A stretch of DNA of 45,393 bases from Candidatus Methylacidiphilales bacterium (GTDB lineage Bacteria > Verrucomicrobiota > Verrucomicrobiia > Methylacidiphilales > JAAUTS01): assembly GCA_028713655.1 (NCBI GenBank), contig JAQTNW010000026.1, positions 1 through 45,393 on the forward strand, read 5' to 3'. Below the pieces are notes generated by a model. It was not told where the DNA came from. It did not search any database and saw only the letters and a list, made by a program, of their open reading frames with translations. Position 1 is the first letter of the stretch. Every line of letters begins with the position of its first letter. Made by a program: the position numbers and the translations under genes. Below are positions 1 through 6,171 of the stretch, one piece after another.

Positions 1-110
1 GCAAACCGCTCGACTTTTGCCAAACGCTGAAATATCGAATCCTCAGAATTCTGCGCATGCGTGGAAATGACAGTAAGAACGAAAAAAGTAATAATCAGGC
101 TCAGTTTCAT
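1..110 (-). CDS. Partial integron-cassette gene for a secreted protein
   Basis: The gene starts at 110 and runs off the left edge of the window, so only 36 codons are visible. The product begins MKLSLIITFFVLTVISTHAQ, a classic Sec signal peptide with a probable signal peptidase I cut after THA. The mature part begins QNSEDSIFQRLAKVERF. It starts 9 bases after the cassette boundary hexamer at 119-124, as expected for a gene that follows an attC recombination point. Its own attC would lie beyond the window. The function is not recognised; export to the periplasm or beyond is inferred from the signal peptide. Confidence 0.6.
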   Translation of the reverse strand, partial: MKLSLIITFFVLTVISTHAQNSEDSIFQRLAKVERF

Positions 111-118
111 TTTTCTAA

Positions 119-229
119 ATCGAACGTTACGCATCAGGCATGACCTGCGACGGCGCGGCTCCTGCCGGAGCGTAGCGACAAGCAGGAGGCGTGACGAAGT
201 AGGTCATTGGCTGGATGCGCTGGTTAGAC
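119..229 (-). other. Integron attC site (left copy)
   Basis: Read on the minus strand the site runs from the R'' box GTCTAAC (229-223) to the R' box GTTCGAT (125-119). Between them, GCGCATCCAGCCAATGACCT pairs imperfectly with AGGTCATGCCTGATGCG, giving the long arm with unpaired bases typical of attC. The centre holds further short hairpins (GCTCC/GGAGC, CTCCTGC/GCAGGAG). It is identical in its body to the site at 949-1059. Only the terminal core bases differ, because they belong to the next cassette. Confidence 0.8.
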
Positions 230-462
230 GGTTTGTTCTACTGAGCGTAAATCCGGTTCCGCAAAAGTCGAGAAATCTCCCTCTCGATCTTGATCCTAAT
301 CCAGAGTTTTTCCACCCTGCCGCGTTGACCAAGTCCTTTTGAAATTTCACCATCAACTCGGCCCGTATTTTTTGTCTTTCCGCAAGATGTTGCTCAACCG
401 ACAGACTTTTGCAGCCGGGGGCGATAATCGAAACATCTGATTTCATTTTGTGTCCGTCTAAC
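121..462. repeat. 342-bp direct repeat, copy 1 (duplicated gene cassette)
   Basis: This segment matches 951-1292 over 342 bp with one difference, g at 450 against a at 1280. Its ends fall exactly at attC core boundaries, so the repeat is one integron gene cassette plus the shared core bases, not a random duplication. Confidence 0.95.
204..446 (-). CDS. Hypothetical integron-cassette protein, copy 1
   Basis: This is an 80-residue product identical to the one at 1034-1276. It begins MKSDVSIIAPGCKSLSVEQH. A probable amphipathic helix follows (residues 16-40, rich in Glu, Arg, Lys, Leu), then a basic Gly/Ser/Arg stretch. The frame stays open further upstream in this copy, but the ATG at 446 is chosen because it sits 10 bases inside the cassette and is shared by both copies. 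The last codons and the stop lie inside the attC site, which is common for cassette genes. No family is recognised and no membrane segment or signal peptide is seen. Confidence 0.45.
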   Translation of the reverse strand: MKSDVSIIAPGCKSLSVEQHLAERQKIRAELMVKFQKDLVNAAGWKNSGLGSRSRGRFLDFCGTGFTLSRTNRLTSASSQ

Positions 463-629
463 GCTAAGCTCACCCACGGCTCTCTGGAAGCGGCGGCTGG
501 CAGCAAAACGGTGCAAGGCGAAGGCGCGGAGGCTGCGGAAGCAGCGTCCGTGACTGAGCCGGTGGAGTTGTGACCGCGCTTTTAAACGACCCGCGCGGAG
601 AGCCGTTGGTGTGCAGCGCCTGGTTCGGT
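456..629 (-). other. Integron attC site (middle)
   Basis: On the minus strand it runs from R'' ACCGAAC (629-623) to R' GTTAGAC (462-456), about 174 bp. The arms GGCGCTGCACACCAACGGCT and AGCCGTGGGTGAGCTTAGC are imperfectly complementary, and the inner ends GAGAGCC/GGCTCTC pair exactly. R'' matches the first hexamer of its own cassette (TTCGGT at 954-949), while R' takes its last six bases from the following cassette. That is the expected signature of integrase-mediated insertion. Confidence 0.75.
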
Positions 630-633
630 GTTT

Positions 634-939
634 TCATGTGATTGTGATTCCATCCGATTCACCCACTAAATTGAAGCTTCCATCCGGTGATTGCATTTCT
701 ATCTGGGGTCGCTTCTCGTCTCTTTCAAGGACGGCGATCTCCTGCCCATTAATTGGGCCAATACCGATTGCTTTTCCGTCAGTTGGGTATGCCAGTGTGG
801 TATCGCGAGCGATGCGCTCCCAAGTGTGGGTTTCATATACGCCGCGACCTGAGTGCGAAATGGCGAGTAAATAGTTCCCTGAGGCATCAAATCCCATGGC
901 GACTAAACCACCGATTAATAAATGCTTGCGTGGATTCAT
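634..939 (-). CDS. Hypothetical integron-cassette protein, 101 aa
   Basis: The gene lies between the attC sites at 949-1059 and 456-629 and fills its cassette almost completely. The product begins MNPRKHLLIGGLVAMGFDAS. It reads as alternating short beta strands and turns (FDASGNYLLAISHSGRG, then YPTDGKAIGIG, then PDGSFNLVGES), which resembles one or two blades of a WD40-like propeller. No catalytic motif, clear signal peptide or strong membrane helix is seen. The ATG at 939 lies about ten bases after the core hexamer, as in the neighbouring cassettes. The function is unknown. Confidence 0.55.
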   Translation of the reverse strand: MNPRKHLLIGGLVAMGFDASGNYLLAISHSGRGVYETHTWERIARDTTLAYPTDGKAIGIGPINGQEIAVLERDEKRPQIEMQSPDGSFNLVGESDGITIT

Positions 940-948
940 GTTTATTTC

Positions 949-1059
949 ACCGAACGTTACGCATCAGGCATGACCTGCGACGGCGCGGCTCCTGCCGGAG
1001 CGTAGCGACAAGCAGGAGGCGTGACGAAGTAGGTCATTGGCTGGATGCGCTGGTTAGAC
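949..1059 (-). other. Integron attC site (right copy)
   Basis: On the minus strand it runs from R'' GTCTAAC (1059-1053) to R' GTTCGGT (955-949). The body is identical to the site at 119-229. R'' is the exact complement of the first hexamer of its cassette (GTTAGAC at 1292-1286), as expected for a cassette that once existed as a circle. Confidence 0.8.
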
Positions 1060-1292
1060 GGTTTGTTCTACTGAGCGTAAATCCGGTTCCGCAAAAGTCG
1101 AGAAATCTCCCTCTCGATCTTGATCCTAATCCAGAGTTTTTCCACCCTGCCGCGTTGACCAAGTCCTTTTGAAATTTCACCATCAACTCGGCCCGTATTT
1201 TTTGTCTTTCCGCAAGATGTTGCTCAACCGACAGACTTTTGCAGCCGGGGGCGATAATCGAAACATCTGATTTCATTTTATGTCCGTCTAAC
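951..1292. repeat. 342-bp direct repeat, copy 2 (duplicated gene cassette)
   Basis: This is the partner of 121-462, with one substitution (a at 1280). It lies 830 bp away, separated by one unrelated cassette. Confidence 0.95.
1034..1276 (-). CDS. Hypothetical integron-cassette protein, copy 2
   Basis: The 80-residue product is identical to that of 204-446; the only base difference between the copies lies upstream of the start codon. This copy is first in the array, next to the presumed attI end, and so would be nearest to any cassette promoter. No family is recognised. A helical, charged middle part and a basic tail are all that can be read from the sequence. Confidence 0.45.
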   Translation of the reverse strand: MKSDVSIIAPGCKSLSVEQHLAERQKIRAELMVKFQKDLVNAAGWKNSGLGSRSRGRFLDFCGTGFTLSRTNRLTSASSQ

Positions 1293-1345
1293 AGTATTAT
1301 TCAACCACCGGTGTTTGTATCTGGTTAAAGGCCACCGGTGCTATA
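1286..1345 (-). other. Array end and candidate attI region
   Basis: The rightmost core GTTAGAC (1292-1286 on the minus strand) has no clear attC fold on its right side, so this should be the attI end of the array. The adjoining 50 bp hold two copies of the palindrome CACCGGTG at 1306-1313 and 1333-1340, 27 bp apart, which could be recombinase-binding sequences. attI sites are poorly conserved, so this is inference from position. Confidence 0.35.
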
Positions 1346-1456
1346 TCACAGATCAATACCACCCAAAATCGGGAGATTCGTCTTTGGTGCTTCATTTGTG
1401 GGATTTTTGCACTCCGATAGCTTCCGATCAAGAAAATCCACGGCGTCCTGCAGCAT
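1346..1456 (-). CDS. Very short open frame, unrecognised
   Basis: A 36-residue frame (MLQDAVDFLDRKLSECKNPT...) lies where the start of the integrase gene should have been. It has a helical N-terminus. There is no clear ribosome-binding site, and it may be chance or debris from the event that destroyed the integrase gene. Confidence 0.15.
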   Translation of the reverse strand: MLQDAVDFLDRKLSECKNPTNEAPKTNLPILGGIDL

Positions 1457-1520
1457 TTTCACATAAACACATTTATTCCTTCTGAATGTTTAACAGGTGA
1501 CAATTTTGAAAAAATCCGGA

Positions 1521-1595
1521 GACATCACCACGATGATCTATACCCACGTCCTCAACCGCCCGGGGATCGCCGTCGTGTCGCCGTTGGACGAGTGA
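1521..1595 (+). pseudogene. intI: Integron integrase (IntI), C-terminal remnant
   Basis: The plus strand encodes GDITTMIYTHVLNRPG followed by IAVVSPLDE and a stop at 1593-1595. This is the hallmark end of integron tyrosine recombinases: T-T-x-I-Y-T-H-V-L with the catalytic Tyr, then the short Ser-Pro tail. The rest of the usual roughly 320-residue protein is missing, and a stop (TAA) lies in frame at about 1492. The direction fits an integron exactly, since intI should read away from the cassettes, which extend leftwards. The remnant cannot be active. Confidence 0.75.
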
Positions 1596-1792
1596 GGGAA
1601 AGGGATTTAACGCAAAGCCGCAATGCGCCAGCGGCGCACGCAAAGAAATAAAATTTATTGTTTTTGACGGGCAAACAAAACCCGCCTTCATTTCCCCCGC
1701 ACAACGGAATATTCCGACGTATCGCCGCGCTCAAGATCCAAAGCGGTGTCGCGCTGCACTTGCCACCGCACTCTACATTTAAACATTTCAGA
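1596..1792. other. Non-coding stretch between integron remnant and atpC
   Basis: No convincing gene is seen. A short GGCGGG/CCCGTC inverted repeat around 1666-1687 lies downstream of the ATP synthase operon but lacks a proper T-run on the minus strand, so it is not called as a terminator. Together with 1293-1520 this makes about 500 bp without an intact gene. Confidence 0.4.
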
Positions 1793-2236: not shown

Positions 2237-3661
<1,425 letters not shown>

Positions 3662-3707
3662 TCATTTAAATCTTCCATCACATCCAGCCGTTTAGCGTCT
3701 TGCCAGG

Positions 3708-4583
3708 CTATTCCGCCGCCATCTGGGCGGAGGAAATCTCAAGGATCTCGTTTGTAATCGCAGCCTGGCGCGCCTTGTTGTATTCCAAAGTCAACTCCTT
3801 GACCAGTTGGCTGGCATTGTCCGTTGCGGTTTTCATCGCCACCATGCGCGCGCTGTGTTCCGACGCGCGGGCTTCCAACAGCATATGGTACACCTGAAAA
3901 TGCACGTACGCCGGAAGCAGTTCCGACAATAATGTTTCCACATCCGGCTCGTACAAATGTTCCACCGGATTGGCCTCCTGTTGGGCGTGGGATTTGCCTG
4001 CGAGCAGGCCGGGGTCCGTGTTCGCCAGGTCCTGAATCGGCAGAACCTGGAGCTTCTGGGATTTTTGCACCAGCGTATTGATAAATTTTGGATATAAAAC
4101 CGACAGGGAATCGACCTCCCGGGCAAGGAACTTGTCTATCAAAAATTTGGAGACCTGCTTGACCTCGCCGAAACCCGCCTTCTCAGCGATCTCAAAATCA
4201 GCCAGCAAGTTGCGTCCGCTCCGTGCCAAAAACTGCTTTCCCTTGCGCCCAACACTGACAAAGACCGTTTCGCGGGGAAGGCCCGCCGCTTCGCGCAACA
4301 GATTGGTGTTCAGCCCGCCGCACAAACCCTTGTCGGTCGTGATCAACAGAGCACAGGGCGTTTTTTGCGGACGGCTGTTCCAGAGCGGATGCTCAAGCCT
4401 GCCCGCCCTGCGGCTGAGCGAACGGAGCATTTTGTCCATCTGTTCGGCGTAAGGACGCCCGGCCAAAGCCTGGTCCTGGGCACGGCGCATCTTGGACGCC
4501 GCCACCATCTGCATGGCTTTGGTGATCTGGGCCGTGTTCTTGACGGATTTGATCCTCCGCCGTATGTCCCGCAATGCTGCCAT
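3708..4583 (-). CDS. atpG: F-type ATP synthase gamma subunit
   Basis: The 291-residue rotor shaft begins with the typical N-terminal helix MAALRDIRRRIKSVKNTAQITKAMQMVAASK. It contains TDKGLCGGLNTNL and ends with the conserved C-terminal helix (NASQLVKELTLEYNKARQAAITNEILEI), here split by me into its readable parts: NASQLVKELTLEYNKARQ and AAITNEILEISS. The two terminal helices form the coiled coil that turns inside the alpha/beta ring. It lies in the usual place between atpA (53 bp) and atpD (58 bp). Confidence 0.96.
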   Translation of the reverse strand: MAALRDIRRRIKSVKNTAQITKAMQMVAASKMRRAQDQALAGRPYAEQMDKMLRSLSRRAGRLEHPLWNSRPQKTPCALLITTDKGLCGGLNTNLLREAAGLPRETVFVSVGRKGKQFLARSGRNLLADFEIAEKAGFGEVKQVSKFLIDKFLAREVDSLSVLYPKFINTLVQKSQKLQVLPIQDLANTDPGLLAGKSHAQQEANPVEHLYEPDVETLLSELLPAYVHFQVYHMLLEARASEHSARMVAMKTATDNASQLVKELTLEYNKARQAAITNEILEISSAQMAAE

Positions 4584-4635: not shown

Positions 4636-6171
4636 TTATTGGGGGTTCGTCGCGTGGAATTCGACGAGCGCGTTTCGAATCTCGTCGATAAGCCCGTCAT
4701 CAAGCGCCTTCTTGGCCGCAATCTGTTTCAGCATCGCTTCCTTGCGGGTGACGAGATATTCCGTCATTTTTTCCTGCACGGCCTTGATCTTGTCCACCGG
4801 AACGCCGTCGAAATAGCCGTTCTGCGCCGCCCAAAGAATCGCAACCTGAAGCTCGACCGGAATGGGATTGTATTGGCGTTGTTTGAAAATTTCGACAATG
4901 CGCGCGCCACGATCCAGCTTTGTCTTGGTTGCCGCATCCAGATCCGAGGCAAACTGGGAAAAGGCGGCCAATTCCCTGAACTGGGCCAGTTCCAGCTTGA
5001 CCTTGCCCGCCACCTGTTTGATGGCTTTGATCTGTGCCGCGGACCCCACGCGCGAAACGGACAAACCCACATTGATCGCAGGCCTGACACCCTGGTAAAA
5101 CAAATCGGATTCCAGGTAAATCTGGCCGTCCGTGATGGAGATCACGTTGGTCGGAATATAGGCGGAAACGTCACCCGCCTGGGTTTCAATGATCGGCAGG
5201 GCCGTCAGGGAACCGTTGCCGTTCTTTTCGTTGACGCGCGCCGAGCGTTCCAACAACCGGGAATGCAAATAGAAAACGTCGCCCGGATAAGCTTCACGCC
5301 CCGAGGGACGCTTGAGGATCAGCGAAATCTGCCGGTAGGCCACGGCGTGTTTGGAGAGATCGTCATAAATGATGAGCGCATCCATGCCGTTTTGCATGAA
5401 CCATTCCCCGATGGCTGCCCCGGCGAACGGCGCCAGGTATTGCGCTGTCGCCGAATCCGACGCCGTCGCGGCGACCACAATGGTGTAAGGCAACGCTCCG
5501 CTTGCCTCCAGAGTGCCGATGACCCGCGCCAGGTTTGCGCGTTTCTGGCCAATCGCCACATAGATCGAATACAACGGGCGGTATTCCTTATTGCCCGTCT
5601 GCTCGGCTTCACGGTTCAACTTGGCCTGGCTGATGATGGTATCAACCGCCACGGTGGTTTTGCCGGTCGCGCGGTCCCCGATGATCAATTCGCGCTGGCC
5701 GCGGCCGATGGGAATCATCGCATCAATCGCCATGATCCCGGTTTGCACGGGCTGGCTCACCGGTTTGCGCTGGATGATGCCGGGCGCGAGTTTTTCGAGC
5801 GGATTGAAGCTTTCGGCTTTGACAGGTCCCTTGCCGTCCAACGGAGAACCGAGCGCATCAACCACGCGTCCCAGCAAGGCCTTGCCCACGGGGACCTGCA
5901 ACAGCTTTCCGGTGGTCTTGACTTCGTCCCCTTCCTTGATGCCCAGATAGTCGCCCAGTATAATGGCGCCGACCTGCGTATCTTCCAGGTTCAATGACAG
6001 GCCCATCGCGCCGCCTGGAAACTCTATCATTTCATGATAAGCCACTCCGGCAAGGCCCTCGATCTTAACAACGCCGTCCATGATCTCGCGGACCGTGCCC
6101 ACGCTGGTTTTGGAGACGTCCGTTTTCAGGCCTTTGATCTGCGATTCAATATCCGCCAATAAGGTGCTCAT
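4636..6171 (-). CDS. atpA: F-type ATP synthase alpha subunit
   Basis: The 511-residue non-catalytic nucleotide-binding subunit has its P-loop GDRATGKT at residues 165-172 and the family stretch [18 protein letters not shown] in the C-terminal half. The N-terminal helix, which binds the delta subunit, is present. Length is normal. The gene follows atpH after 12 bp, so translation of the two is probably linked. Confidence 0.97.

What the first reader, a model, noticed from the sequence alone, without database searches (positions are those of the whole stretch)
1293..1595. Integrase gene reduced to its last 25 codons
Only GDITTMIYTHVLNRPG...SPLDE with its catalytic Tyr is left, while the intact attC sites and an identical cassette pair look young. 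The roughly 900 bp lost must have been removed after the array formed. The point of loss lies between the candidate attI and codon 300 of intI.
Basis: partly seen in the sequence, partly recalled or inferred. Interest (0 to 1): 0.55.

Follow-up and report, generated by a model that had tools for sequence, protein, structure and literature searches.

The report
Orphaned integron with an integrase stub
Beside a row of mobile gene cassettes lies only the last 22 codons of the enzyme that normally inserts such cassettes, but the same genome keeps an intact enzyme elsewhere, so the row may still be alive; similar stubs turned up in several related bacteria.

Summary
The stub is real. Window 1527-1595(+) encodes TTMIYTHVLNRPGIAVVSPLDE plus stop, the 3' end of an integron integrase: 21 of 22 residues match the intact IntI of the same genome, with 88% DNA identity over 75 nt. 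It lies 235 bp from a candidate attI and near three attC sites. (1) Young cassettes do not date the loss: the genome carries one full-length intI on contig C30, 42 attC-like sites on 12 contigs, and copies of the window cassette in other arrays, so cassettes could be supplied in trans. (2) One deletion of about 900 bp in the array's own integrase is not the only route. In 9 of 112 integrase-bearing genomes of the class, 10-45-codon IntI tails lie directly downstream of a full-length intI, on the same strand (in one, G077, that intI is itself broken). Five of these tails aligned with the neighbour's own tail at only 65-81% nt identity; one is clearly of another subtype. The window stub may be such a fossil. 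No congeneric genome was in the sets searched, so the deletion ends stay unknown. Verdict: new member of a known kind (inactivated integron, CALIN with attI), plus a pattern of stacked integrase tails worth follow-up.

The parts
1527..1595 (+). 3' stub of an integron integrase gene (22 codons plus stop, with the active-site Tyr codon)
   Evidence: TIGR02249 profile 293-313/315; tblastn 21/21; 88% DNA identity to the C30 intI 3' end
1357..1523 (.). spacer of unknown origin between attI and stub, GC 0.41; no match at E<=0.001 in the own genome or 61 other genomes of the order
   Evidence: a 13-nt identity to the G001 attI region has E 0.03
1286..1356 (-). candidate attI: core GTTAGAC (1292-1286) plus two CACCGGTG palindromes (1306-1313, 1333-1340)
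   Evidence: 81% identical over 69 bp to C22:4494-4562, which also abuts a cassette array; palindromes
949..1059 (-). attC site of cassette 1
   Evidence: bottom strand folds at -31.3 kcal/mol versus -19.5 for the top strand, z -5.1 versus -1.1; CM hit E 2e-25, a training sequence
1034..1276 (-). cassette 1 ORF (80 aa, frameshifted by one A relative to the C43/C44 copies)
456..629 (-). attC site of cassette 2
   Evidence: CM hit E 6e-4
634..939 (-). cassette 2 ORF (101 aa), no Pfam family above cut-off
119..229 (-). attC site of cassette 3
   Evidence: CM hit E 3e-25; bottom-strand fold z -5.5
204..446 (-). cassette 3 ORF, duplicate of cassette 1
1..110 (-). start of cassette 4 ORF, cut by the contig end
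1793..2203 (-). atpC (ATP synthase epsilon), chromosomal flank
   Evidence: Pfam PF02823 E 7e-27

Best explanation
A chromosomal integron beside the ATP synthase operon has lost its integrase function. What remains is attI, at least four cassettes read away from attI, and the last 22 codons of an intI gene pointing the other way. The array is now a CALIN that keeps an attI. Cassettes can still be inserted or shuffled by the intact IntI encoded on contig C30, acting in trans. Shown: the stub's identity, the attC folds, the attI resemblance to C22, the intact IntI and the shared cassette. Inferred: that the stub's gene once served this attI, and that C30 IntI acts on this attI and its attC sites.
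For: Stub homology. Seven synonymous and one non-synonymous difference to the C30 tail in 22 codons (P 0.0006-0.0013 under neutral drift), so the two genes diverged mostly under selection. attC folds; of five pairing measures, three (cells paired, cells changed on both sides, covariation score) exceed all 500 shuffles, two (pairs with double change, further pair types) do not (186 and 180 of 500). One TIGR02249 place above cut-off in this genome, on C30. 42 distinct attC-like sites at E<=0.1 on 12 contigs, 16 of them the model's training sequences. The window cassette recurs at 99% on C44 and, in part, at 94% at the C43 edge. No integrase relic within about 1.5 kb of atpC in the 5 of 6 family relatives where atpC was found (one lone attC-like hit each in two of these loci), so the insertion looks lineage-specific.
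Against: The C30 attI differs in sequence from the window attI, so action in trans is not shown. The 235 bp between attI core and stub contain 167 bp of unknown origin, not a recognisable intI leader. This is a 90-contig assembly and the junction cannot be checked against reads. Tails of this kind occur downstream of full-length intI in relatives, which allows another origin.
Confidence: 0.6

Rival explanations
1. Stacked fossil: the stub belongs to an older integrase that was displaced when another platform took its place from the attI side; the later integrase was then lost as well, or never came along. The current attI is not the partner of the stub's gene.
For: In 9 of 112 integrase-bearing class genomes a 10-45-codon IntI tail lies within about 260 bp downstream of a full-length intI; all 11 such tails (three in G355) are downstream on the same strand, none upstream or on the other strand (recounted). 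In G001, the only one of six family relatives with an integrase above cut-off, the extra tail has 12 synonymous and 2 non-synonymous codon differences from its neighbour; in G143 it is of another subtype. The window attI resembles that of C22, not C30, although the stub resembles C30.
Against: No integrase is now present between attI and stub. attI may simply evolve faster than intI. In G355 the tails are identical tandem copies, not fossils, and the G295 tail is a weak match of 10 codons (E 0.006).
Confidence: 0.3
2. Assembly artefact: the contig joins attI/array sequence to an unrelated intI end.
For: The genome is a fragmented assembly, with contig edges in or near repeated cassettes.
Against: The stub differs from the C30 intI, the only other full intI found, at 8 of 66 nt, so it is not a piece of C30, and it lies 1.5 kb inside the contig.
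Confidence: 0.05
3. Chance peptide unrelated to integrases.
For: Short frame; solo tails in some relatives have no attC site detected nearby, though both detectors are weak there.
Against: 21/21 identical residues and 88% DNA identity with E 9e-20, plus the expected orientation relative to attI and cassettes.
Confidence: 0.01

Closest known systems
CALIN (cluster of attC sites lacking an integron integrase)
   Same: attC array without a working integrase, with a complete integron elsewhere in the genome; PMC12444791 (passages seen) says CALINs can be mobilised in trans by a functional IntI
   Different: a candidate attI and an intI 3' stub are still present
Inactivated chromosomal integrons of Xanthomonas
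   Same: [quoted passage not shown] nearly a third of intI genes were pseudogenes in PMC2426708 (passages)
   Different: other genomes, not Xanthomonas; only 22 codons left; intact second integron in the genome
Integron integrase IntI (TIGR02249)
   Same: C-terminal 22 residues with the MIYTHV active-site Tyr (role recalled)
   Different: all else absent

Membership tests
Integron integrase (TIGR02249) | score above the curated cut-off | tested here: not met
   stub 25.8 bits versus cut-off 265: a relic of a member, not a working member
Integron integrase (TIGR02249) | C-terminal Tyr motif | tested here: met
   TTMIYTHV at 1527-1550
CALIN | at least two attC sites | tested here: met
   three sites by covariance model, one of them a training sequence; two of them folded
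CALIN | no neighbouring complete intI | tested here: met
   only the stub within the window; the array's distal end lies beyond the contig edge and was not seen
Complete integron | functional intI next to attI | tested here: not met
Complete integron | attI recombined by an integrase | not testable with these tools
   attI inferred from position, core site and the C22 match

The most novel reading that the evidence does not exclude
In this bacterial class integron platforms carry a fossil record: integrases are repeatedly replaced from the attI side, with the right-hand break falling in the last 45 or so codons, so that short 3' tails of former integrases pile up downstream of the current one. 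The window shows a late stage, where the tail of a former integrase survives and the array lives on an integrase encoded elsewhere.
Probability: 0.3. Interest if true: 0.55.

Novelty: new member of a known kind. Interest (0 to 1): 0.38.

Why it matters
It corrects a tempting inference: young cassettes beside a dead integrase do not date its death when an intact integrase exists in the same genome. The stubs found downstream of full-length integrases offer a way to read how often integron platforms swap their integrase, which sequence comparison can test directly.

Tried and rejected
Looking for the missing 5' part: the spacer 1357-1523 shows no credible similarity to the two IntI used, and none at E<=0.001 in the own genome or 61 order genomes. 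An N-terminal integrase relic on C14 (6835-7044) looks too diverged from C30 to be the missing half, judged by eye only. A scan of genome contigs with the IntI alignment used poor patterns and returned two loci: G001's contig (titled MAG Blastochloris sp. SM1_596_0, label not checked) and a distant recombinase in a Methanocorpusculum record. RNAalifold found no base pair in the attC alignment, so the structure was given by hand; model R2 finds few sites outside this family. My own attC finder worked in G000 and G001 but found none upstream in L148, where R2 found ten, so I draw nothing from its blanks; its background control was run on the wrong sequence and was redone (2 hits in 41 kb at the setting used).

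Test of directional loss in 56 of the 112 genomes, matches in frames under 130 aa: C-terminal 19 in 12 genomes (recounted), N-terminal 7, one of them only 11 positions long, middle 3. The second batch of 56 gave 25 C-terminal ones in 19 genomes and was not searched with the other two profiles. The tail profile is the most sensitive, and some of the C-terminal matches are contig-edge, frameshifted or internally deleted genes, so the excess is suggestive only. The palindrome-spacing test of attI is weak: 30, 35, 71 and 54 of 1000 shuffles pass it, and the C30 pair I describe is 24 bp apart, outside the tested 26 plus or minus 1.

Full report
Observation. The frame at 1509-1595 is real and is an integrase relic. 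Its last 22 residues are the C-terminus of an integron integrase (TIGR02249, profile 293-313 of 315, E 6e-6). The intact IntI of the same genome gives 21 of 21 identical residues at 1527-1589, and the DNA is 88% identical to that gene's 3' end over 75 nt. The demonstrable homology begins at TTM, not at GDI.

Setting. The window is contig C26 of a 90-contig, 3.29-Mb genome and starts at the contig edge. Reading leftwards on the minus strand from 1292 come a candidate attI core, then an 80-aa cassette, a 101-aa cassette, a second copy of the 80-aa cassette, and the start of a fourth ORF cut by the contig end. attC sites at 949-1059 and 119-229 fold much better on the bottom strand than shuffles (z -5.1 and -5.5); for the site at 949-1059, the only window site of which both strands were folded, the bottom strand gives -31.3 and the top strand -19.5 kcal/mol. 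On 16 attC sites of this genome the arms pair in 90% of cells and the covariation score exceeds all 500 shuffles; two stricter measures that count pairs or types do not stand out (186 and 180 of 500). To the right lies atpC. In the 5 of 6 family relatives in which atpC was found, no integrase relic lies within about 1.5 kb of it.

The genome is not without integrase. A search for TIGR02249 in 60 genomes found one place above cut-off in this genome, on C30 (424 bits; ORF of 457 aa at 2786-4159), with its own attI-like region and cassettes. A covariance model of the local attC sites finds 42 distinct sites at E<=0.1 on 12 contigs, 16 of which trained it (distinct sites counted by hand). C43 and C44 carry array ends that run off their contigs at the right, as the attI ends C26 and C30 do at the left; at most one of the two can continue the window array (inference). 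The 80-aa cassette occurs in the window twice, on C44 at 99%, and in part at the C43 edge at 94%. The window copies share a one-base deletion absent from the C44 and C43 copies. So the window's cassette family sits in other arrays of a genome with an intact IntI, and the near-identical pair says nothing about when the local intI was lost.

A sister array. C22 has an attI-like stretch 81% identical to that of the window over 69 bp, next to a short cassette array, and no convincing intI similarity (best hits E 0.008 several kb away and E 0.09 nearby). In the four attI regions compared (window, C22, C30, G001) two near-palindromes follow the core at about 15-17 nt (hand arithmetic), with centres 27, 27, 24 and 26 bp apart; their sequences differ between loci except that window and C22 share one. 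Taken singly this is weak against shuffles, and C30 has a further palindrome between the two.

When was it lost? Of 8 differences between the stub and the C30 tail in 22 codons, 7 are synonymous (P 0.0006-0.0013 under neutral drift). The two genes therefore diverged mostly under selection. This gives no date relative to the cassettes.

Relatives. Searching for the full-length gene led to something else. G001 has, 46 nt after the last aligned codon of its intI, a second IntI tail of 30 codons. A 24-codon tail profile over the 112 integrase-bearing genomes (112 of 384 in the class sample) gives 115 matches in frames of 230 aa or more, and extra tails within 1 kb of one of these in 9 genomes (G001, G077, G133, G143, G194, G198, G295, G306, G355). 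All 11 tails lie downstream on the same strand (the list was cut off near E 0.006). The intI of G077 is itself broken by stops, and the G295 tail is a weak match of 10 codons. In G001, G143, G198, G133 and G306 the extra tail is 65-81% identical to the neighbour's own tail at the DNA level, so it is not a recent duplication; in G143 it belongs to another subtype. In G077 and G194 my script found no comparable segment in the neighbour, although their residues or best matches differ from the neighbour's. G355 is a tandem repeat of 199 bp with identical tails. G295 was not analysed further. Solo tails without a full-length neighbour also occur, for instance three in the two-contig genome G209 and one each in G215:C12 and G294:C18. 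Others turned out to be contig-edge, frameshifted or internally deleted genes.

Meaning. The two cannot be separated without a close relative.

Literature. Five library searches and passages of three papers show inactivated integrons, CALINs and mobilisation in trans as known matters. I saw no description of stacked integrase tails in those listings and passages; I did not read whole papers.

Noticed in passing
G000:C22:4494-4562 (L050): attI-like site of the window type beside a short cassette array with no convincing intI trace; the next ORF is at 4740-5651.
   Followed up: partly
L059 7262-7351; L143 1724-1858; L144 5170-5229; L145 3060-3104; L146 1627-1755; L147 5942-5980; L148 6094-6144; L149: Extra IntI C-terminal tails directly downstream of full-length intI genes, mostly diverged from the neighbour.
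   Followed up: partly
L151 about 5913-6127, L154 about 5872-6013, L148 about 6008-6144: In three genomes an insert of 162, 89 and 80 bp splits an IntI relic at or next to the active-site Tyr codon; L145 and L149 may share the break point and share a short motif. Possibly a small mobile element with a preferred target.
   Followed up: no
G000:C14:6835-7044 (L029): Separate N-terminal integrase relic (TIGR02249 positions 20-90) in a 118-aa frame.
   Followed up: partly
window 1034-1276 and 204-446: Both window copies of the 80-aa cassette lack one A present in the C44 and C43 copies, which changes the C-terminal reading frame.
   Followed up: partly
window 1599-1660 and 1733-1779: Short dispersed repeats, about 10 and 13 further listed copies in the genome (hand count), just downstream of the stub.
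   Followed up: no
L027 2786-4159: The intact IntI is 457 aa and the TIGR02249 match starts only at residue 144; PMC2426708 (passage) mentions a clade of IntI about 120 aa longer. In G001 the matching N-terminal part is in another frame.
   Followed up: no
L123, L124, L125 (G209): Three IntI tails, each preceded by a palindromic repeat element ending at the same position; in L123 more of the tail lies before the element.
   Followed up: partly
G038:C1:1685749-1686515: intI-like pseudogene with stops in a genome of the same order.
   Followed up: no
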